Source of the DNA: Porogramme epimiltina
Lineage: Eukaryota > Basidiomycota > Agaricomycetes > Polyporales > Polyporaceae
Reading direction: 5' to 3'
Length of the DNA: 64,000 nucleotides
Assembly: GCA_900155495.1 (NCBI GenBank)
Contig: FTLJ01000237.1
Span: 1-64,000, forward strand
The translations under genes and the position numbers were made by a program. Of this stretch, positions 50,619 through 61,407 are shown piece after piece. The notes under the pieces were generated by a model that worked only from the letters and a program-made list of their open reading frames with translations, had not been told where the DNA came from and ran no database searches. Position 1 is the first letter of the stretch. The number at the start of each line of letters is the position of its first letter.

Positions 50619-52346
50619 ATGTCTACAGTAGCCGATCCCGTCAAGACTGCGGCGGAGTATTGGTACGCGTCGTCCGCTACTCGTGTCTCCCTCTTTCTCA
50701 AACGTATACGTATCCACAGGAGCTCATCTGCTCGCGTCGACAGCTACTGGACAATAGCAGCTTTCGGTGTGTATACTCTCACGTCGCGCGTAACCTGCAC
50801 GGGTGATCTCATGTTTCTGGCAGCCATCTTGTACTATGACTTTGGTTTGACCATAGGTGCGGAGGTAGAATATTTCTGGAAGTCAGCAAACCTCTCTTTG
50901 GTATCAACACTCTTCGTCATCAATCGATACTATGGTCTTCTGGGACCTCTTCCAATAATCGCAGAGTACTTTTTGGATATATCAGAGCACGTGAGTACTC
51001 ACGAGCCTCAAAGTAAACATGACTCAGCTAACCCCTCTCTGTAGCGGTATGTCGCACATATAGGCCCCCAGAACTAAGCTTCCTAATAGCAAGATATCGA
51101 TATTCTTTAGGTGCCGTCAGGTTCAAACGTATCACCAAGCATTCGCTATATCATTGGAGATCATCGTGACTAGTATGTTTCATAACTCTCAAACATCTGT
51201 ATGCTCTGACTCTTTCAATGCAGTCATGCTCGCTATTAGAACGTACGCAGTATATGATCGTAGTAAGCGGATCCTCGCGTTACTTCTCGTCGCGCACCTT
51301 GGAGGCGTTGCCGCTTCTCTCGTGAGCAGCCTTCCATTCAGACTTCCTTAATTCGCTCACTATGTCCTCAGGTCACCGTGATAACTACCACAAGCCCCGT
51401 GGATACCGTCACCCCGTTACCATTTCGGTTCACGGGCTGTGACCTGTCTTTAACGAATAGCCAGTAAGTGCTTTTATGGAATTTCATCTTCTAACGCTGA
51501 ACTGAAAATTTCAGGGGCATGCGTAAGTTTTTCCACATCATCCATGGATCCCCAATAATGATTGGCTCAGACCTCGCGCTGGCGTGGGGCGCGATGTTAT
51601 GGTTCGACATCACGATCTTCGCGTTGACGCTAGCAAAGGCGCTCCGGATGCGCCGCCATTTCCCCGGGGGATTGTTAGAAGTAATATTCAGAGATGGTGG
51701 GTAGGACTATTTCGGGGTTATATCGCCACAGGCACCGCTGAAATTTATCACTATGGTATGTTGCAGGCACTCTATATTTCGCGTACGTATAATCTAGTAT
51801 GACTTCAAGCTCGCGAACGCCGCTGACCGTCAGGTGCCTCCACGTAGTATCATGCTGGTATCTACCATTGCGAATATAATCACTTTCATGCCAGTAGGTG
51901 TCTACACTCGGTCCCCGTAAATATATCTAATGAAACATGGCGTACTTAGGTCACCCGGGTATGCTCCAAATATCTGAGTTCTGTCGTAATTCTGACGCGA
52001 AAGTCCTCCAGTCCGGTTCACCTTTGAAAGGACTGGATACGACTCTAACCAACGTGTGAGTTGCAAGGACCACTTAAAGACCATCTCTGACAAAGATTTT
52101 GTTCTTATCAGATTCTCCACAACTTTAACGTCACGCCTTATCCTCAATTTGCGGGACCCCAAGCTCCGCCGGCCAAGGCACCTCGGTGAAACTGGCCAAG
52201 ACTTTACAGCCGAGTCTATATCTATCCCAGGTCCTGCGACAACAACTTCCCATATGATGTCCTTCCGTTGCACTCTGACGCAGATAGAACTCGAACATAC
52301 TGTGGTGAGCGCCACTGATCATCAAGACGCAAGGCTGCGGGCCTAG
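50619..52346 (+). CDS. DUF6533-like multi-pass membrane protein, paralogue A
   Basis: Fourteen exons encode 331 aa: 50619-50662, 50720-50766, 50824-50990, 51045-51046 (2 nt), 51111-51172, 51224-51321, 51372-51463, 51515-51522 (8 nt), 51571-51696, 51767-51782 (16 nt), 51848-51893, 51950-51958 (9 nt), 52012-52055 and 52112-52346. The family block AILYYDFGLTIGAEVEYFW, then LFVINRYYGLLGP, is the N-terminal DUF6533-type signature. About six or seven hydrophobic helices follow, with IRTYAVYDRS, LAWGAMLWFD and VIFRDG conserved among the copies. The C-terminal tail after LTSRLILNLRDP is hydrophilic. Function is unknown; such proteins are abundant in mushroom genomes. The exon-11 donor has moved 3 nt to reach a GT, adding one Pro relative to the other copies. 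Confidence 0.82.
51045..51046 (+). other. 2-nt micro-exon (CG) of paralogue A
   Basis: The preceding exon ends in phase 0 at 50990 (GAG CAC), and the following exon starts with one base before TGC CGT at 51111. Exactly two bases are needed between them, and CG here sits between ...ctgtag and gtatgt. The result is His-Arg-Cys-Arg. The flanking introns are 54 and 64 nt. Confidence 0.75.
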
Positions 52347-53522
52347 AGGCTAGGAGGAAGATTGTCCGAGGAAGAGGTTCCGACTCCCCATCTGTACCAA
52401 TAGAACTGCGCCTGATGTGAGCAGCATTTACATTGGTCGATGTAAGGAGATAAATCCTCCATCTCCTCTAGGTTTACCTTCATGATATCAATGTATACCC
52501 TGGTACGAACGAATCCATCTCTGCTGACGTGATTAACGTGCTGACCGCTCTTCCGTGTCAGGGCCCAACTCAATGATATCTCCGTGACCTAGCTGCTCGC
52601 ACAGCGCACATCTTCGGGAACCGATGATCGAGACTCGATGTGTCATATTGCTCCCTCCATTCTGATCTTGGTAATCCGTTCTCGGCATCTGCGGATGCAG
52701 ATGTCAGGTATGCTCTTCGGTCGACGCCTATGCACACGCCGCCGGCGGTCGCGACCTGGTTTAGCTCACGTTCAGACATGTATAGCCGCAAACCGCCACT
52801 GATAACTCACGAGAGTCCTACGGTCTATATAATGCTCCGACTACTTTCCTCCGCCCGTGTGGGCCGGACCTTTGACCTCTCCGCGAAGATCATGAATGGA
52901 GCAGAACGCAGAACGACCGCTCCCGCACCAGGTACCACTACAAGGTTCAATTGAAGCGCAGTCTGAGCTCCCACATACCCTCGCCTCGATCGGCATATTC
53001 ATCGCCTCTTCCCGGAAACAAATCATTGTCAGTGGGCGCTCCTCTACTGGTCTGCGGCCAGTGGAGGCGGGACGTGTAGGTGCAGTCTGTAGTCTTCCTT
53101 TTACGTTCCCGTGACTGCGGTTTAATTTGCTTCTTAATTTAGGGTTTCACGGGGCGTGAGGTCCTTCCTGCCCACCACCACGTTGACCTGCCAAGCAGTG
53201 ATCTAAATAGCAGCTGTATTTCTCCCGAGTCTCCGCTTGAATAGACGACTACTCCTTCCGAGGGCTGGATGCAGGCCTACTCTCCCGCGGAAAGCGCCCA
53301 CCCGTCAAACGGCGCATTGCGCGAAGACACCGCACGCTTACATACGACAGGAAGAAGAAGACCTTGTCCTCGTTCCAAAGGCCGGTCTTCCCTGTCATCC
53401 CCGTGTCATCAAGGCTGCCAGTCTGTGAAATACCCCCCTTCGAGTTCGCCGTCGAGGTTGACAGCCCCCTCGCCTGCGCCCAAACCACCCCCGGAGCCTA
53501 CGGGTATACGAGTACGCCGTTC
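52347..53522. other. Spacer between paralogues A and B
   Basis: About 1.2 kb with no supported gene. The right end should contain the promoter of paralogue B. A frame without ATG is continuous with the B start codon from about 53364, which leaves the true 5' end of B a little uncertain. Confidence 0.4.
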
Positions 53523-55298
53523 ATGGACACCTTGCAAGCCTCCGCAGAAACATTGTGCGTCGCGTTGGCTTTTCTCGTGACACTACTAGCCCCATCCTCA
53601 CCACTATTGTATCCAGTGTCTCCGGAGTACGCGTTGACGCATCTCTTACTCTTGCCGCATTCTGTATGTTCTCTTGCGGCAGTTGCTACTCTGTATCCTC
53701 TGATCTGAAGCAAAACCCCGCAGCGATTCTCTATTACGACTATGCTCTTACTGTGATGTCTGAGATCCAATACTTTTGGACTCCACCGTCATTTTCCCCT
53801 TCATTTGTGTTGTTTGTGATTAGTCGATATTTTGGTCTCCTTGGCCCTATACCCGTGTTCTTTGAGTATTTTGGGATATTCTCCGAGCATGTGAGTCCAC
53901 GAATTCTCACCGATATCCGTACGTCCCTAATCAAGTGATTCCGCCTAGCGGTACGCATGTCTATCGGTGGTTTAGACATCGATGGTTCATCTGATTCCGT
54001 CGTCATAGGTGCCGGCAATTACAACTGTACCACCAAGTTTACGCAATTGTGAGCCAGGGAGTCGTAGCGAGTAAGTAGATGGGAAGGAGGCCGCGGATGT
54101 GTTTAGCTACTGACCATCTGTTGGGGCAGTTCTTTTGATCCTCCGGACATACGCCCTCTACAATTGTAACAAGCGGGTCCTGGCCATCCTTATCGGCATG
54201 CATCTTGGTGGAGCGATACAATGCCTCGTAAGTCGCCGCTGGTCTGACAGAGCTACCTTCCCAAGAATTTGACCCGCGCGCCGTCATTAGTCGGCCGTGT
54301 TGACCAGCAATAGCCCACTGACGACGGACACTCCATTGGGCTTTAAATACTCTGGTTGCAACCTGTCCCTTACCAGCGACCAGTACGTGCACCGCCTCTC
54401 CCACTCCGCACATCGGCGTTGATTGACCCGTTCCGGGAATAGAGGTGTTCGTGAGTTCATTCACCGGCTCGGCCAACGATGGCCATGATTGATTCACACA
54501 CGGCAGACCTAGCGCTAGCATGGAGCGCCATGTTGTGGTTCGATACGACAATATTCGTCTTGACATTCGTGAAGGCCATACGGATGAGGGCTGAGATATC
54601 TGGAGGATTGCTTGAAACGATGTTCCGAGACGGTTCGTACCTGTGAATGATATCCATCCTCGGGGCATACACTCACCCTGCCCCTCTCAAGGAACCATCT
54701 ACTATGCGTAAGTGACCCTTGCGTAGAGATACATGGCGAGTAGATATTGATGACTCTCTTGTCCACCGAAGTATCCTTGTTGCCGTAAACGTGGTCAACA
54801 TCATCACCTTCCTCGTGCGTATAATATTTAACCTCCCGGGCAGCACAGGATGTAATTGGCGACCATACAGGTGACGCGCGTGAGTGACGTGCCGAAAGTA
54901 CATCCGATCATCAGGCCTGGAGCTCACGGGCCGCTGTAACTCTTAGTCCGTCTCGCCGATGAAGGGCATGGCTACGACACTGACGAATGTGTAAGCCGGC
55001 CATCTTTCGTATTGTAACGGTTCCCGGCTTCCCTGACACCCTTCTGACACCGGCGCGGAGCAGGCTCTCCGTCACGCTCACCTCACGACTGATGCTCAAC
55101 TTGCGAGACCCGAGCATTCAGTTCAGGCGGCGGGTCAGCGGAACGAGTCGACACGAGGGGTGGTCAACAGGGCAGTTCAGCTCCAGGATGATGTCCTTTA
55201 GACGTCCGACATTGGCGAACGGCATCGACAGCGTGTCTATGGACGATCTGGGCGATTCGTCCGCCGGAACGGTCTCGACGTCCACATCAAAAGTATAA
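53523..55298 (+). CDS. DUF6533-like multi-pass membrane protein, paralogue B
   Basis: Fourteen exons encode 326 aa: 53523-53554, 53617-53663, 53724-53890, 53949-53950 (2 nt), 54009-54070, 54130-54227, 54291-54382, 54443-54450 (8 nt), 54507-54632, 54692-54707 (16 nt), 54772-54814, 54871-54879 (9 nt), 54947-54990 and 55064-55298. It has SILYYDYALTVMSEIQYFW and FVISRYFGLLGP as the family block, LRTYALYNCNKR, LAWSAMLWFD and MFRDG. Its closest relative here is paralogue A: ten of the 14 exon lengths including the 235-nt last exon are identical, and both read VTR at the 9-nt exon. The protein is probably in the plasma or an internal membrane; its role is unknown. Confidence 0.82.
53949..53950 (+). 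other. 2-nt micro-exon (CG) of paralogue B
   Basis: It is flanked by ...ccgcctag and gtacgc and joins GAG CAT to G TGC CGG, giving His-Arg-Cys-Arg. The flanking introns are both 58 nt. Confidence 0.75.
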
Positions 55299-56196
55299 AA
55301 TTCTCACAAGCCCGGTGTCTTGCATGTATAGGTGAGTGGGCTGCGTTCACAAGGCAACCGTCTCATTAACATTTGCGCAGTACTTACAGTGTAATTGTGA
55401 CTGTATACAAATGAGCTTCGTTGGGCAGATCCGACTTCGCGCTCTGGACTGCGCCGCAAGAACCCCCTGGAGGCTGGTGGTGGCGTATCGAGGGGCACAT
55501 GGGTGAGGGTGCCGAGATCCCATCACGACGGGAATGAAAGTTACGTGCCCAGCATCTTGGTTTCCGAAGGACGGCCCATGTTGCAACGGGTCCGGGTCCC
55601 GTATTTTTGAATGCCGAAAGGAGGAGATCGTTTCGACCCCGATGGGCGCTACCGTTTGTCTGATCACCTCGATCAGAATCTCTTGCCGGAGAAGCTGGAG
55701 GGCTCTCGGCGGGCTCAGCAGCTACGTCTCAGGTTCACCTCCTGCGGACGGCGGACGGGGCTCAAGCGAGTGTTGCAGGTTCAGCACTCTGTTTCAGCTA
55801 GGCTCCATGGAGACGCAGTAGAAATACTAAAGACTTGGTTATACAGGAACCCGGGGAAAGCGCAGCATATACGTCACCCCCACGGGCCTACTACCATCCG
55901 GACGGGGGATGCCTATTTAGCGAACGCCGCGGCGCCTGGGAAAACGTATTTGCCTGGGCCGAGCGTGAGGACCGCTGCGCGGCACGAGCCCTGCCACCGA
56001 ACTTCTGACCGTCCGACCCGCCTTGATATGATTATCGCCTCTCGAGGAGCACGCACTTGCCCCGTGAGCCTCTGTCTTGGGCCGCACTCAACGTTCAGGC
56101 AACGTCGATGCAGCACATGCTTTAACAAGGCCGACACAGCGCTGGACGCCCGACGAGTATCGCTGTCTTCCCGTTGGCCTTCCCCTCCAGGACGCC
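55299..56196. other. Spacer between paralogues B and C
   Basis: About 0.9 kb; no gene with support. Expected to hold the promoter of paralogue C. Confidence 0.4.
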
Positions 56197-58375
56197 ATGG
56201 CCTCGGAGTTCTCCACCTCAGCCGTGGTGGGGTTGTGCGTTTCCCTGTCCTTTCTTCCATTGCTATACATTGTACTGACTTGTTCATGGTTACAAAGGGC
56301 CGAGTCCATGCGCCTGAACAATAATCTGGCCGCGGCTGCGTTTGGTACGCCACATTATTCCAAGTTCTGGGGATAGTTGCTTACCTCGCGACGTTCTAGC
56401 TTTTCTGTTCTTCGATTACACCCTTACTCTGGGTCGAGAGGTCGAGCACTTTTGGAAAACTGCTAAGTTCAACCTGGTGTCGTCCCTCTTCGTTATCAAT
56501 CGTTACCTCGGATTGTTGGGTCCTATTCCGGTTATTTTCGAGTATTTCGTTCCACTGGAGCCGGAGGTGAGCACACTATTTTCGAGTTGTAGCCCTTGTA
56601 CCCATACAAGCACATTATGTCGACGCTAGACGTACGTTCTATCCTGCTTTCTTACCACGCTTGTGTTGACCCGTCTTCGTTTAGATGCCGACATTTTCAA
56701 CGGTACCATCAGTACTACGCCCTCATAACACAGATGGTCATTGGCCGTAAGATATAATGTCTAGTCTTTCTCTGCATGGTTGCTAACGCGTTACTAGTCC
56801 TCCTCATCCTGCGCACACTGGCTTTGTACCATCGGAATAGGAAGGTGCTTATAGGTCTGGTGAGCTTATCTGCCGTTCTGGTCACCGTACGTCTACCACT
56901 TAGTTTCATGCGCGCCGTTGATTATTGACTATTTTAACGCTTAGGCAACACTCGTGGCAAACTTCAGCGCGAAGAAATCATCGCTAGATTCCGCCTCGTC
57001 GACCCTTAGTCTCGACATCGGGTGCAATCTCTCCTTGACCGCTTCAGAGTGAGTAGTGCCCACCCTTGATGCAAGAACTTCCCTTCTTAACTTCATATCC
57101 TAGGGGCCTTCGTAGGTTGTTTTTATTTGTGCAAACTTGCTGGAATACTGATGTGGGGCACTTCAAGGGGGAGCAGCAGGATGGATTGCCATGTTTGTTC
57201 TGGACACGACGGTGTTCATCCTGACGGTCATTCGGACCATGCAAATGCGACACACCATGCAGACTCAAGCCATATTGGTTATCCTCTTTCGCGATGGTAG
57301 GTTTCGGACACAGCTCTTCGTATGCATGTCTAACCCAAGCTCGCTATCTAGGTACTCTGTATTACTTGTATGTCCTTTTCCGTAGTTCAACTAGATCAAG
57401 TTGCTCACTCCGATTGCAGGGTTCTCGTTGCCGCGCTCGGGGTCAATATCGTGACTTTTATTGTGAGTGCCCCGATACCTTCTCCAGTTTCGCGTCGTCT
57501 GAACCCTTGGGTTTGTAGGCACCTACGGTTAGTCGATATTTGCGTGTGGGCGTACCACCACTCACCCTTTATCTTATGCAGTCACAAGACGGGAAGAGGG
57601 GAATTGCTACAACACTAGCCAATGCGTCAGTTCTAGGACCCAGTTTTACCTAGATTTTCCGTGTCCTGATCCCTATATTCGTTCTAGTTTATCGACCACA
57701 CTGGTCTCGCGGATCATCCTCAACCTTCGTGACCCGAACCTCCAAAATGGTGGCCGCCGGTGGACAATGGGCACATCACACTCAGAGAGCATGTCGGGTG
57801 GAGGCCGCTTGAAGATAGTCTCTATCTGCATAGCTCCTACCGGGCACGACATAGAGATGGACGCCATCCCGATGACTGTCACGAGCCCTCAGTCTGAACA
57901 GGTATCTCAACGACCCGAGGACGAGCTCAAATCTCAGTACTCTTCTCAACAACACGGGTCTCAGCATGGCCACAAGTCATCCATCTCGCGGCACACTTCC
58001 CAGTCGTCGTTGCCTCAATACGCACCTGAGCCACCACCGCCTCTGCCCCAACAAGGTTCCCAACACCCGACCTCGCGGTCGTCTCTGCACCATCACCGCT
58101 CAAGGTCATCCGTCCGTCGCCAAGGATCTCATCCACAGTGGGCGGGCACAAATCCGAGCTCTCCGGCAACCCCTGAGACCCCCCCACCCCCATGGTCGCA
58201 GCACGCTCGCACACCATCTTATTCGTCGCGCAATTCCCAACACAGAGAAGGGCGGCAACACAAACACGATCATCCGTTCTGTGTGAACCCCGAGCACTGC
58301 TCGCACCGGTGGCAGATAGTTGAGGTCGAAAGACAACAAGCCCCTCCTCGCCAGGTATGTGACCTAGAATTATGA
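56197..58375 (+). CDS. DUF6533-like multi-pass membrane protein with long polar tail, paralogue C
   Basis: Fourteen exons encode 481 aa: 56197-56234, 56298-56344, 56400-56566, 56630-56631 (2 nt), 56685-56746, 56798-56886, 56945-57048, 57104-57111 (8 nt), 57168-57296, 57352-57367 (16 nt), 57420-57462, 57519-57527 (9 nt), 57582-57625 and 57688-58375. Family block: AFLFFDYTLTLGREVEHFW, LFVINRYLGLLGPIPV, GWIAMFVLDTT, ILFRDG, STTLVSRIILNLRDP. The last exon is 688 nt instead of 235-274 and adds a tail rich in Ser, His, Gln and Pro (QQHGSQHGHKSS, PPPPLPQQG) ending with HPFCVNPEHCSH, a Cys/His arrangement that might bind metal. Exon lengths of 89, 104 and 129 nt are shared with paralogue D. Confidence 0.82.
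56630..56631 (+). other. 2-nt micro-exon (AC) of paralogue C
   Basis: It is flanked by ...gacgctag and gtacgt and joins CCG GAG to A TGC CGA, giving Glu-Thr-Cys-Arg. The flanking introns are 63 and 53 nt. Confidence 0.72.
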
Positions 58376-59684
58376 CACGGTGCGGGCCGGCGCTGGAAGG
58401 CTGACTGTGATTCCGCAGTGACCGCTTATATTTGGTCGACGTCGTGTACATATGTCCCGACGCGCGCCGGCCGCCTCGAAGTCGCCGGGCTCCTTCTTTG
58501 CTCGGACTCACAGCGGATTGCGCAACCTGCCACTTTCCCTTCCATAGCGTGCTTATCGGACAGACAGACAAATCGCCTGTGTATAATTAGCTAGCTTACC
58601 ACCTTCAGGCCCGATACTAGCGCAGTTCGGATGCCTTAACGCCGCTCTTTACGTTGCCTTTTCCACCTCATATTCTTCGCGATGTCGAGGATGCCGTCGA
58701 GCACTAGCAACGTCTTGGCCGTCGGATCGGAGAATCGGTCCACGGCCCCGACGACGGAACCTAGCCGCTGTGTTTGAAATTCAAGCGCCCGCACTTCAAC
58801 ATGAGGGTGTCGCTTCGCGTGAGGCCAACTTGAACACCTCTCAACAATTAACACTGTACGTATATCCTTCTCCATACCCCGCAATGAACTCGAGGTGGTC
58901 CTGAATTAGACTCCATGCTGCGTAGACTGCGAACTGCGAACTGCGGTGGGTAATCCGTCTGGCGGCTCTCAGTAACGAACTGAAGCCCATTCGTAGCAAT
59001 AGATCTTCAAGTGCGGCTGCACATGACGCAGTAGCTTCCGCCTCTTGCACCGCGGATCGCGCGAAAGCTGTTCGCACGGACGCCAGCGTCGTTCCGGCAG
59101 GGGCGTCGTCCCGGTTGCGAGGACCTCTAGAACGCCGGCTTCTGGCACGGCCGCCGGACGGTGCGTATCAGAAGATCTTTTAGACTCATCGTCCTCGCGC
59201 ACCCCGCCCGCTTCCTAAACTTCGCTCGCCACTCGTGTTACGAAACTGCTCCTTCTCCATGGGATCCCGCGCTGCGGGCAGGAGGATCCTACGGCGCATG
59301 TGAAAGACAATCACATTGTCCCTTGAGAAGGAGAGCGCGAGAAGCTCAGATAACGTAGGCCCTGCATAGATTTGCACCACTGTAGTCACGGATCATGCAC
59401 CCGATACGACGACGGCTCCGGGCAGCCTCCCGTTTTCCAACACCCGTGGAAGTGTCCGTCTCACGGCGTCAGCGAGGGTAGCTGGGGCAAGGCGTTTCTC
59501 CTAACCTTGCTGACGCACGTTGCTAATATCTACTTAAGCGGGGGTTCTTCCTCCCTCGGTGTGGGGAGGCCCGGGTGCGCAAAAGACTTCCCGGCGTTTG
59601 GTACATAAGGACTGGCGGGGTTTGCGGGAATGGAAAGCTAATGCTTGAACTCAGGCACCACTGCGGCTCCCTTTCGAGGCAGCC
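58376..59684. other. Spacer between paralogues C and D
   Basis: About 1.3 kb. Reading frames are short and unsupported. Expected to hold the promoter of paralogue D. Confidence 0.4.
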
Positions 59685-61407
59685 ATGGACTCGGACGCGT
59701 ATGCGACGGTCACACTGTATGTCCTTGCCTTAGTTATCGAAGAAACGTACCCTGATCAACCAATGATGTCGTAGAGCCAAGTCTACGCACCTCAACAACA
59801 ACTTGGCCGTCGTTGCCTTTGGTAGGCACAATTGCCCCTTTCTCATATACCGCACGCTCATATCATCCCCAGCGATGCTATACTACGATTATTCCCTTAC
59901 GATTAGCAGAGAAATAGAGCACTTTTGGAAGGGAGCACGACTATCCTTCGCTTCCGCTCTTTTCGTGCTTAATCGCTATCTCGGGCTCCTGGGACCCATT
60001 CCCATCTTTTTCGAGTATTTTGGTCACCATGTGGGTCCTATCTCTCATTTATCTCTGGCACAGTCCGCGAGTCCTCATATACTACTCTAGAAGTGCGATC
60101 CATTGTACTGCGAATTGATATTCAAAATAACACTTAACAACGTACACAGGTGTCGTCACTTGCAGAGATATCACCAATACTATGCTGTGATCAGTCAAGT
60201 CATTGTCGGAAGTAGGTTCCTCACCTTCCTCTGTTGGGTTGGTACTGATTACCTCTAGTGTTACTCGTAGTCCGAACGTATGCCTTGTATAACCGGAGCA
60301 GGTTGGTCCTACTCGGGCTCATTCTCTTTGCTTTCGCCCTCTTAATTGTAAGTCTCAATTGTTGCAAACGTGCCGACGGCGATGGCGGCAGCTTAATTAA
60401 TGTTTGTTCTCTCGGGAAGGTAACGCTAGTGTCAGGAAATCTGAAGGCAGAGCAGATGGCTACTTCTGACACTCCCTATTATGGAGCAATCGATTCCTGT
60501 GATCTCGCCACGACGTCGGACCAGTGAGTTCTCATACTAGGACAGTCGCTCCGCTTTTCGCTAATATGTTGTGCAGGGGTCTCCGTAGGTGTTCGAACTA
60601 CTTTATGTAGCAATTAATCCTGACATTAACACCCAGGGAGCGCAATCGGATGGCTTGCCATGCTTTGCCTGGATACCACAGTGTTCGCACTCACCTTGGT
60701 CCGCACAATCCAGATGCGTCACAATATCTATCAGCCAGGGCTTCTGATGATACTTTTTCGAGACGGTACGTTTTCACGGTGCCCTCTTCGTGTCTCTACT
60801 GATTGGTTCGTGTAGGGGCCTTCTATTACGCGTGCGTCACGATATGCACCAGTTTCCAACGGGCTAACTCGTAAATTCGCAGAATTCTTGCCTTAGCAAA
60901 CGCCGGAAATGTCTTGACGTTCATGGTTAGTGCCTGTCAACGATTGTTGCTGAACGGATCTCACCATCTCTGCAGGTGCCTACCGTAAGCTTCATTCAAC
61001 ATCACTTGTTCTCGCTCTAAAACGATACAGGGAGGATACTGGAAAAGAGGACTTGTGACTACGTTGGCGAATGCGTAAGTGAATCTACTTTGGTCGTTAT
61101 CTCGTGGTTAGCCTGACTCTGGACTATCAATAGATTGTCAACTACCCTGGTTTCACGTATCTTTCTCAACCTGCGCGACCCTAGTCTACATGGCGGCGCT
61201 CGCGGAGGAGGAAGGTGGTCACTCTCCGGGCTATCCGAGCAGGGAGTGGAGAGCATGAGCCCGCGCATATCATTCTGCCGACCCGCCAACGGGCAACAAA
61301 TATATGCACAGCCCACGAATGCAAGGCAGCTAGCAGCGGTTGCAGAGGTAGAAGAGATACAGATGGTAGAGGTGCCATCAGCGCTGCCCTCTAGGCAAGA
61401 GGTCTGA
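59685..61407 (+). CDS. DUF6533-like multi-pass membrane protein, paralogue D
   Basis: Fourteen exons encode 338 aa: 59685-59716, 59775-59821, 59873-60030, 60091-60092 (2 nt), 60150-60211, 60259-60347, 60420-60523, 60577-60584 (8 nt), 60637-60765, 60816-60831 (16 nt), 60883-60925, 60976-60984 (9 nt), 61031-61074 and 61134-61407. Family block: AMLYYDYSLTISREIEHFW, LFVLNRYLGLLGPIPI, VRTYALYNRSR, GWLAMLCLDTT, ILFRDG, GLVTTLANALSTTLVSR. It groups with paralogue C by exon lengths and by sequence around STHLNNNLA/SMRLNNNLA. Exon 3 is 9 nt shorter than in the other copies. Molecular function is unknown; tandem duplication and sequence divergence suggest lineage-specific roles. Confidence 0.82.
60091..60092 (+). 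other. 2-nt micro-exon (AA) of paralogue D
   Basis: It is flanked by ...ctactctag and gtgcga and joins CAC CAT to G TGT CGT, giving His-Lys-Cys-Arg. The flanking introns are 60 and 57 nt. Confidence 0.72.

What the first reader, a model, noticed from the sequence alone, without database searches (positions are those of the whole stretch)
51045..60092. A 2-nt exon conserved in four tandem paralogues
In each of the four DUF6533-like genes, the third exon ends in phase 0 and the next large exon begins with a single base before a conserved TGC/TGT-CGN (Cys-Arg). Only a 2-nt insert restores the frame. Each gene has exactly one suitable ag|NN|gt between them: CG at 51045-51046, CG at 53949-53950, AC at 56630-56631 and AA at 60091-60092. 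Each is flanked by normal-sized introns (53-64 nt) with good donors and acceptors. The resulting codons are CGG, CGG, ACA and AAG. Exons this short are at or below the smallest reported to my knowledge, and conservation over diverged copies argues that the splicing works.
Basis: partly seen in the sequence, partly recalled or inferred. Interest (0 to 1): 0.93.

Follow-up and report, generated by a model that had tools for sequence, protein, structure and literature searches.

The report
Two-nucleotide exons across a gene family
Four neighbouring fungal genes, and most of the relatives examined in the same genome, appear to be cut so finely that one exon is only two letters long, yet it must be kept for the protein to be read correctly; exons this tiny were known from single genes, not as a repeated part of a large family.

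Summary
I read 97 DUF6533 (PF20151) genes of the window's own genome. In 76 a protein profile fixes the frame of the next exon; 68 of these 76 have a usable ag|NN|gt path, 67 of the 68 after a phase-0 exon, and 2 nt is the best inserted length (1-30, no frame constraint) in 58 of 76. Shuffled gaps hold any such site in about 11%. Paralogues with only one of the two introns carry the missing bases on a neighbouring exon. A relative's protein pair, one continuous (P0002) and one reading through introns (P0044), fits none of 6048 single-intron structures and exactly one of 11366 two-intron GT-AG structures: a 2-nt exon; two ordinary junctions of the pair solve as 52-nt introns. A second family microexon is 2 nt in 59 and 8 nt in 21 of 92 genes. 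No RNA of this organism was available. 'At or below the smallest reported' does not hold: 1-nt exons are published for plants and Fusarium. Verdict: real, frame-restoring 2-nt exons; a known kind at unusual scale.

The parts
51045..51046 (+). 2-nt exon CG of gene 1 (codon CGG, Arg)
   Evidence: ag|CG|gtatgt between introns of 54 and 64 nt
53949..53950 (+). 2-nt exon CG of gene 2 (codon CGG, Arg)
   Evidence: ag|CG|gtacgc between introns of 58 and 58 nt
56630..56631 (+). 2-nt exon AC of gene 3 (codon ACA, Thr)
   Evidence: ag|AC|gtacgt between introns of 63 and 53 nt
60091..60092 (+). 2-nt exon AA of gene 4 (codon AAG, Lys)
   Evidence: ag|AA|gtgcga between introns of 60 and 57 nt
50824..50990 (+). 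gene 1 exon 3 (DUF6533 core), ends in phase 0
51111..51172 (+). gene 1 exon 5 (62 nt), starts G-TGC-CGT
53724..53890 (+). gene 2 exon 3, ends in phase 0
54009..54070 (+). gene 2 exon 5 (62 nt), starts G-TGC-CGG
56400..56566 (+). gene 3 exon 3, ends in phase 0
56685..56746 (+). gene 3 exon 5 (62 nt), starts A-TGC-CGA
59873..60030 (+). gene 4 exon 3, ends in phase 0
60150..60211 (+). gene 4 exon 5 (62 nt), starts G-TGT-CGT
51515..51522 (+). second family microexon of gene 1, 8 nt
   Evidence: splice sites read
54443..54450 (+). second family microexon of gene 2, 8 nt
   Evidence: best length 8; splice sites read
57104..57111 (+). second family microexon of gene 3, 8 nt
   Evidence: splice sites read
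60577..60584 (+). second family microexon of gene 4, 8 nt
   Evidence: splice sites read; frame closes
59685..61407 (+). gene 4 as a whole: 14 exons of 32, 47, 158, 2, 62, 89, 104, 8, 129, 16, 43, 9, 44, 274 nt; 338-aa open frame
   Evidence: conceptual splicing by eye, frame closes with a stop; one acceptor is AAG; PF20151 E=1.1e-14

Best explanation
Each of the four genes carries a true 2-nt internal exon, spliced in between two separate normal-sized introns. It supplies the first two bases of the codon just before a conserved Cys, placed by the model of a relative at the start of the third helix of a seven-helix protein. Most of the DUF6533 genes examined in this genome have the same exon. 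Because two bases cannot hold both splice-site complexes at once, I infer that the introns are defined individually and removed one after the other: the first splicing fuses the two bases to one neighbour, the second completes the codon. Shown here: the sites, frames, recurrence and length markers. Inferred: the order of removal, its efficiency, and that this organism's own mRNA contains the two bases.
For: Sites and frames at all four loci. Strict YAG-N2-GTRNG after exon 3 in 69 of 97 paralogues, against 1-26 of 97 for the other spacings 0-14. Exon 5 placed by profile in 76 of 97 (53 of them with the profile of other species' proteins alone, the rest after adding this genome's hits): AG exactly at ag|N-codon in 73 of 76, Cys in 67 of 76, a k=2 path in 68 of 76, phase 0 in 67 of 68, best inserted length 2 in 58 of 76. 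Shuffles predict any AGNNGT in 8.4 of 76. Intron and gap lengths of 66 genes are spread evenly modulo 3 while the exon stays 2. Length markers: C130:153809 lacks intron 1 and has GT fused to exon 3; five C162 genes, splice sites chosen by eye, lack intron 2 and start exon 5 with a whole codon plus Cys. P0002 (continuous) and P0044 (read-through) of a relative: 0 of 6048 single-intron structures with any splice dinucleotides fit, and exactly 1 of 11366 two-intron GT-AG structures (middle exon 1-30 nt, introns of at least 20 nt): exon 2 nt, introns 56 and 53 (widening); two ordinary junctions of the same pair give exactly one GT-AG intron each, of 52 nt. Open frames of 338 and 356 residues result with the microexons included.
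Against: No transcript of this organism was seen. That P0002 comes from RNA is inferred: its frame is continuous, the same source tag reads straight through introns in P0044, and its N-terminus runs on in front of the usual start as if through 5'UTR; but its 1770-bp contig is by my estimate just long enough to hold the gene with introns, so the inference rests on that source not splicing. Paralogues are related, so the counts are not independent trials. In 8 of 76 genes my thresholds gave no k=2 path (one is the intron-1-less gene; in the others a weaker ag|NN|gt can be seen by eye, and in two of them exon 5 itself seems misplaced); in 18 of 76, those 8 among them or not, 2 nt was not the best-scoring length; 21 of 97 had no confident exon 5, and some of those (C327:80718, C577:33223, C332:56027) show no clear site. 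In the outside-only test the strict motif placed correctly was found in 30 of 40, with spacing 0 in 9 of 40. Several deposited models of relatives skip the exon in frame.
Confidence: 0.95

Rival explanations
1. A single long intron of about 118 nt is removed and the frame is kept by a shifted acceptor or donor, changing or deleting the Cys-Arg codons.
For: In-frame AGs lie shortly inside exon 5 in genes 1, 3 and 4, and gene 1 also has an in-frame AAG 18 nt upstream of it (read by eye); deposited models of relatives (P0004, P0005, P0006, P0010) use such a junction.
Against: In gene 2 the first in-frame AG lies 48 nt inside the 62-nt exon; the acceptor lies exactly at ag|N-codon in 73 of 76 genes and the Cys that would be lost is conserved in 67 of 76; P0002 keeps Arg-Cys-Arg where the 95% identical Fomes model P0004 lacks Cys-Arg; no single-intron structure fits the P0002/P0044 pair.
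Confidence: 0.02
2. The ag|NN|gt sites are chance matches in intron sequence.
For: AGNNGT is short; a gap of about 120 nt holds a suitable one in 5-11% of shuffles for the four genes.
Against: Four of four window genes and 68 of 76 frame-anchored paralogues have it, against 8.4 expected; at this place spacing 2 stands far above the others.
Confidence: 0.01
3. The arrangement is a stwintron or a recursive-splicing ratchet point rather than an exon: the two bases are part of a splice signal and leave with the intron.
For: Acceptor and donor lie almost back to back, and in some paralogues (ag|GT|gtgagt) the microexon itself reads GT.
Against: Both introns have complete, non-overlapping GT and AG ends in the four genes, and a phase-0 donor with an ag|N acceptor needs two more bases.
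Confidence: 0.02
4. The exon is real but often skipped, so that inclusion versus skipping (frameshift and decay) sets how much of each protein is made.
For: Skipping would shift the frame; P0043 of Trametes meyenii looks by eye like such a frameshifted join in a deposited model.
Against: No expression data; P0043 may be only a prediction error; donors of the second intron are about as strong as those of the first (mean score 7.02 against 7.34).
Confidence: 0.25

Closest known systems
1-nt exon of plant APC11 (and VPS55)
   Same: Ultra-short exon between two canonical introns, required for frame, conserved, missed by annotation; homologues without one or both introns carry the base in a larger exon (PMC8831610, passages; PMC4674806, passages and discussion)
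   Different: One base instead of two; one or a few gene copies, not a large expanded family; transcripts were sequenced there
1-nt exon of Fusarium cytochrome P450 CYP621A
   Same: Fungal; inferred from frame and an intronless length marker, confirmed by reads; wrong in nearly all deposited models (PMC12940212, parts 1 and 2 of 3 read)
   Different: One base; orthologues of one gene in about 20 species rather than many paralogues in one genome
Microexons of 2-10 codons in Phanerochaete chrysosporium P450 genes
   Same: White-rot basidiomycete, small introns around tiny exons in a large gene family (PMC1184071, passages)
   Different: Shortest exon reported there is 6 bp
Stwintrons
   Same: Two introns so close that they must be removed in sequence (PMC9024468 and PMC12403724, starts of abstracts in the listing)
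   Different: There an internal intron splits a splice signal of the external one and no exon remains between them

Membership tests
Ultra-short (1-3 nt) frame-restoring microexons | Separate internal exon between two complete canonical introns | tested here: met
   GT-AG introns of 53-64 nt on both sides in all four genes
Ultra-short (1-3 nt) frame-restoring microexons | Needed to join flanking exons in frame | tested here: met
   Phase-0 donor in 67 of 68 k=2 paths and ag|N acceptor in 73 of 76 genes; full frames of 338 and 356 residues with it
Ultra-short (1-3 nt) frame-restoring microexons | Conserved across homologues, with intron-loss homologues carrying the bases in a larger exon | tested here: met
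   68 of 76; C130:153809 and five C162 genes, the latter by eye
Ultra-short (1-3 nt) frame-restoring microexons | Present in mature RNA | tested here: inconclusive
   Not for this organism; indirectly for a relative through P0002/P0044
Ultra-short (1-3 nt) frame-restoring microexons | Constitutive rather than alternative inclusion | not testable with these tools
   No reads available
DUF6533 (Pfam PF20151) | Match over the curated cut-off | tested here: met
   Gene 4: 54.7 bits against cut-off 24.1
Stwintron | Internal intron interrupts a splice signal of the external intron | tested here: not met
   In the four genes both donor and both acceptor signals are whole and two bases apart
Zero-length recursive splice site (ag|gt ratchet) | Acceptor directly followed by donor, no exonic base kept | tested here: not met
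   Two bases lie between and are required for frame

The most novel reading that the evidence does not exclude
In this fungus (a polypore by its nearest named relatives), 2-nt exons are a routine, genome-scale part of gene structure: the DUF6533 seven-helix family alone contributes well over a hundred of them, commonly two per gene at two fixed positions, both obligatory for frame, spliced accurately by one-after-the-other intron definition, and in place before the family expanded; inclusion may act as a shared gate on expression of the whole family.
Probability: 0.5. Interest if true: 0.85.

Novelty: new member of a known kind. Interest (0 to 1): 0.7.

Why it matters
Exons of one or two bases have been curiosities of single genes. 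Here 97 genes show 127 candidate 2-nt exons at two positions (68 first-site paths; 59 second-site best fits), along with copies that lost one of the two introns. That is replicated natural material to test how a spliceosome handles an exon too small to hold two complexes. It also means that gene models of this family can be wrong at these junctions, as the disagreeing deposited models show, changing the protein around a conserved cysteine. One DUF6533 protein, SNB1 of Coprinopsis, is needed for fruiting-body patterning (PMC10949477, section 8 and passages).

Tried and rejected
Shifted acceptor or donor with one long intron: rejected by gene 2, by Cys conservation and by the protein-pair computation. 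Longer alternative middle exons: lengths 1-30 were scored without frame constraint; 2 stands out at the first site, 2 and 8 at the second; at the second site a 6-nt alternative passes in 30 of 90 genes but is best in none. My first 'control' region (nt 500-790) was no control: it holds the second microexon (55 of 97 at k=2); the region 800-1090 shows 2 of 97 at k=2. A GC donor four bases inside exon 3 (genes 1 and 2) was considered by eye and dropped because genes 3 and 4 lack it. In one search my string search placed the 2-nt exons of genes 1 and 3 wrongly (first match of the same letters) and the partial gene 1 model was translated out of frame; one search gives the right places. One search tried a limited set of structures; one search repeated it over a wider set with the same answer. 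Searches for transcripts covering both 2-nt exons gave deposited models and a few short pieces only. Deposited models cannot serve as proof, since they disagree at this junction. The tree has few columns and is used only to show that the exon occurs in distant branches; there I labelled C162:87641 as intron-2-less by position, unverified. The fold search gave no match at E<=0.001, only weak ones to seven-helix receptors (best E 2.8e-3, TM 0.45 by query), and supports no more than a seven-helix fold. Paper searches for 2-nt exon wordings found nothing relevant (one unrelated paper; none); the other searches were made; only openly licensed papers are held.

Rows dropped: of 98 profile hits one (C148:147824, score 8.2) was dropped; 21 of the 97 had no confident exon 5, 5 of the 97 no confident exon 9; one search tallied 66 of the 68. 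The 97 come from the places listed; the other places listed there were not read.
Full report
What was checked. The four sites are present as described: CG at 51045-51046, CG at 53949-53950, AC at 56630-56631, AA at 60091-60092, each between an AG and a GT, with GT-AG introns of 54/64, 58/58, 63/53 and 60/57 nt. Exon 3 ends in phase 0 in each gene; exon 5 begins with one base followed by TGC or TGT and CGN, so two bases are missing unless the 2-nt exon is used. Gene 4 can be read from start to stop as 14 exons (32, 47, 158, 2, 62, 89, 104, 8, 129, 16, 43, 9, 44, 274 nt) giving 338 residues (boundaries chosen by eye, one acceptor is AAG), with a DUF6533 match of 54.7 bits. In dinucleotide shuffles of the four gaps any AGNNGT leaving two introns of usable size appears in 5-11% of 300 trials each.

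Family-wide recurrence. The window belongs to a 41.9-Mb draft genome with at least 150 places that match PF20151; the nearest named relatives of gene 4 are polypore fungi. I read loci of 97 such genes. In the stretch after exon 3, YAG-N2-GTRNG occurs in 69 of 97 genes; spacings 0, 1 and 3-14 occur in 1 to 26 of 97. Letting a splice-site score choose the length of an inserted exon (1-15 nt) without any frame requirement, 2 nt was best in 65 of 97 genes and no path existed in 16.

Frame anchored by homology. I built a 19-residue profile of exon 5 from proteins of other species, leaving out the Cys and everything before it. With outside proteins only and a strict threshold, 40 genes passed; 40 of 40 had the AG at the expected place, 38 of 40 the Cys, and 30 of 40 the strict motif at spacing 2 with intron 2 of 40-75 nt (spacing 0 in 9, others 0-4). 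With a laxer threshold 53 genes passed on outside proteins alone, and adding this genome's own hits brought it to 76 of 97. In these the acceptor lies exactly one base before the preceding codon in 73 of 76, that codon is Cys in 67 of 76, a 2-nt path exists in 68 of 76, its upstream donor is in phase 0 in 67 of 68, and 2 is the best length among 1-30 in 58 of 76. Shuffling predicts any AGNNGT in 8.4 of 76 genes, and one as strong as observed in 0.7% of shuffles on average over 68 genes. Among 66 genes tallied, intron 1 has a median of 63 nt and intron 2 of 58; the lengths of either intron and of the whole gap are spread evenly modulo 3, while the exon remains 2 nt. The codon it opens is Ser 13, Thr 13, Ile 9, Val 8, Arg 7, Ala 6, others 10, with no stop.

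Length markers inside the genome. C130:153809 has one 62-nt intron here: exon 3 is two bases longer (GT) and exon 5 starts A-TGC. Five C162 genes have one intron in phase 0 and exon 5 starts with a full codon plus Cys (CAA TGC, TCA TGC, ACG TGT). The C162 junctions were picked by eye, since the profile did not place exon 5 in that group. Loss of either intron thus leaves the bases the 2-nt exon would supply, on the side expected. In a rough tree of 97 genes the 2-nt form lies on both sides of the midpoint and the window's four genes form one supported group (98/95).

Evidence from a relative. Protein P0002 (349 residues; source tag lgn, 1770-bp contig) is continuous and reads LPSP-R-CRQLQ. Protein P0044 (same tag, longest contig 3642 bp) is identical to it over 55 residues of exon 3 and 34 residues of exon 7 but reads straight through the introns between. 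I asked by constraint solving which gene structures could give both proteins from one DNA. One search tried 6048 single-intron structures with any splice dinucleotides: none fits. It tried 11366 two-intron GT-AG structures with a middle exon of 1-30 nt and introns of at least 20 nt: exactly one fits, a 2-nt exon between introns of 56 and 53 nt. One search had given the same over a smaller set, and one search showed that AGCGGT can occur in the gap only at that place. The same method on the next two junctions returns exactly one GT-AG intron of 52 nt each. That P0002 stems from RNA is an inference: the same source tag reads introns through in P0044, so it does not seem to splice, and P0002 has an N-terminal run-on that looks like translated 5'UTR. 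By my estimate its contig would be just long enough to hold the gene with introns, so this is not proven; a splicing gene predictor would, however, be unlikely to place a 2-nt exon. Two further lgn proteins whose contigs leave little room for introns (P0017, 330 residues on 1195 bp; P0033, 305 on 1141 bp) keep the Cys motif in frame; without their genomic DNA they show no more. Reading lgn as assembled public reads is recall, from no call.

Deposited models disagree at this point: some carry a residue and the Cys (P0003, P0011, P0012, P0015), some lack them in frame (P0004, P0005, P0006, P0010), one looks frameshifted by eye (P0043), some retain intron (P0025, P0028). Two annotations of Trametes versicolor, P0056 and P0059, differ in just this way.

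A second microexon. With the same approach for a downstream exon (exon 9 of gene 4), 92 of 97 genes could be anchored; 90 of 92 have the acceptor at the same place; the best inserted exon before it, without frame constraint, is 2 nt in 59 and 8 nt in 21 of 92, something else or nothing in 12. A 6-nt alternative passes in 30 genes but is best in none. The window's genes carry the 8-nt form. The lengths 2 and 8 agree modulo 3. One paralogue, C33:114324, was assembled by eye in full with two 2-nt exons and gives an open frame of 356 residues; one of its other introns has a GC donor. I found no transcript for the 2-nt form of the second site.

Mechanism. The introns are short, so pairing of sites across each intron is the natural mode. 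Two bases cannot be bound from both sides at once; one intron must go first. The authors of the APC11 work reached the same view for one base (PMC4674806, discussion read). The two donors score alike (7.34 and 7.02 on average), so the sequence does not tell which goes first. A model of P0002 (pLDDT 77, pTM 0.72) has seven long helices with the microexon residue at the start of the third; an invariant Cys lies further on. Matches to solved structures are weak, none at E<=0.001, and those listed are mostly seven-helix receptors. SNB1, a DUF6533 protein of Coprinopsis, is likewise predicted to have seven helices and is needed for fruiting-body patterning (PMC10949477, section 8 and passages).

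Relation to what is known. One-base exons are in print for APC11 and VPS55 in plants and for CYP621A in Fusarium, the last also citing earlier reports of 2-5-base exons in Arabidopsis, Drosophila and humans, which I did not read (PMC12940212, parts 1-2 of 3). I found no paper on 2-nt exons in fungi or on DUF6533 gene structure in the searches named, which cover only openly licensed papers. So the kind is known; what appears new is the number of copies in one genome and two fixed microexon positions per gene.

Changes made on review: the protein-pair computation was widened, the locus of C130:153809 corrected to L012, the by-eye status of the C162 markers stated, and the claim about P0017 and P0033 lowered.

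Noticed in passing
51515-51522, 54443-54450, 57104-57111, 60577-60584: A second microexon of 8 nt in all four genes; at the same position most other DUF6533 paralogues have a 2-nt exon (59 of 92 anchored genes, against 21 with 8 nt).
   Followed up: yes
60816-60831 and 60976-60984: Further tiny exons of 16 and 9 nt in gene 4; a 16-nt exon recurs in gene 1 (51767-51782) and in the C33:114324 paralogue.
   Followed up: partly
whole genome, e.g. contigs C130, C162, C33, C105, C92, C148: DUF6533 matches are very numerous (at least 150 places) and many sit close together on the same contigs.
   Followed up: partly
proteins P0004, P0005, P0006, P0025, P0028, P0043, P0056, P0059: Deposited gene models of relatives disagree at the microexon: in-frame deletion, intron retention or apparent frameshift.
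   Followed up: partly
C714:15698 (L022) and C714:26436 (L028): Two divergent DUF6533 genes seem to have an additional intron or exon between exon 3 and the Cys exon, with ag|GG|gtgaat and ag|AG|gtacga still visible.
   Followed up: no
C130:153809 (L012); C162:105674, 118319, 128256, 148400, 151376 (L047-L049, L052): Paralogues that have only one of the two introns flanking the microexon.
   Followed up: yes
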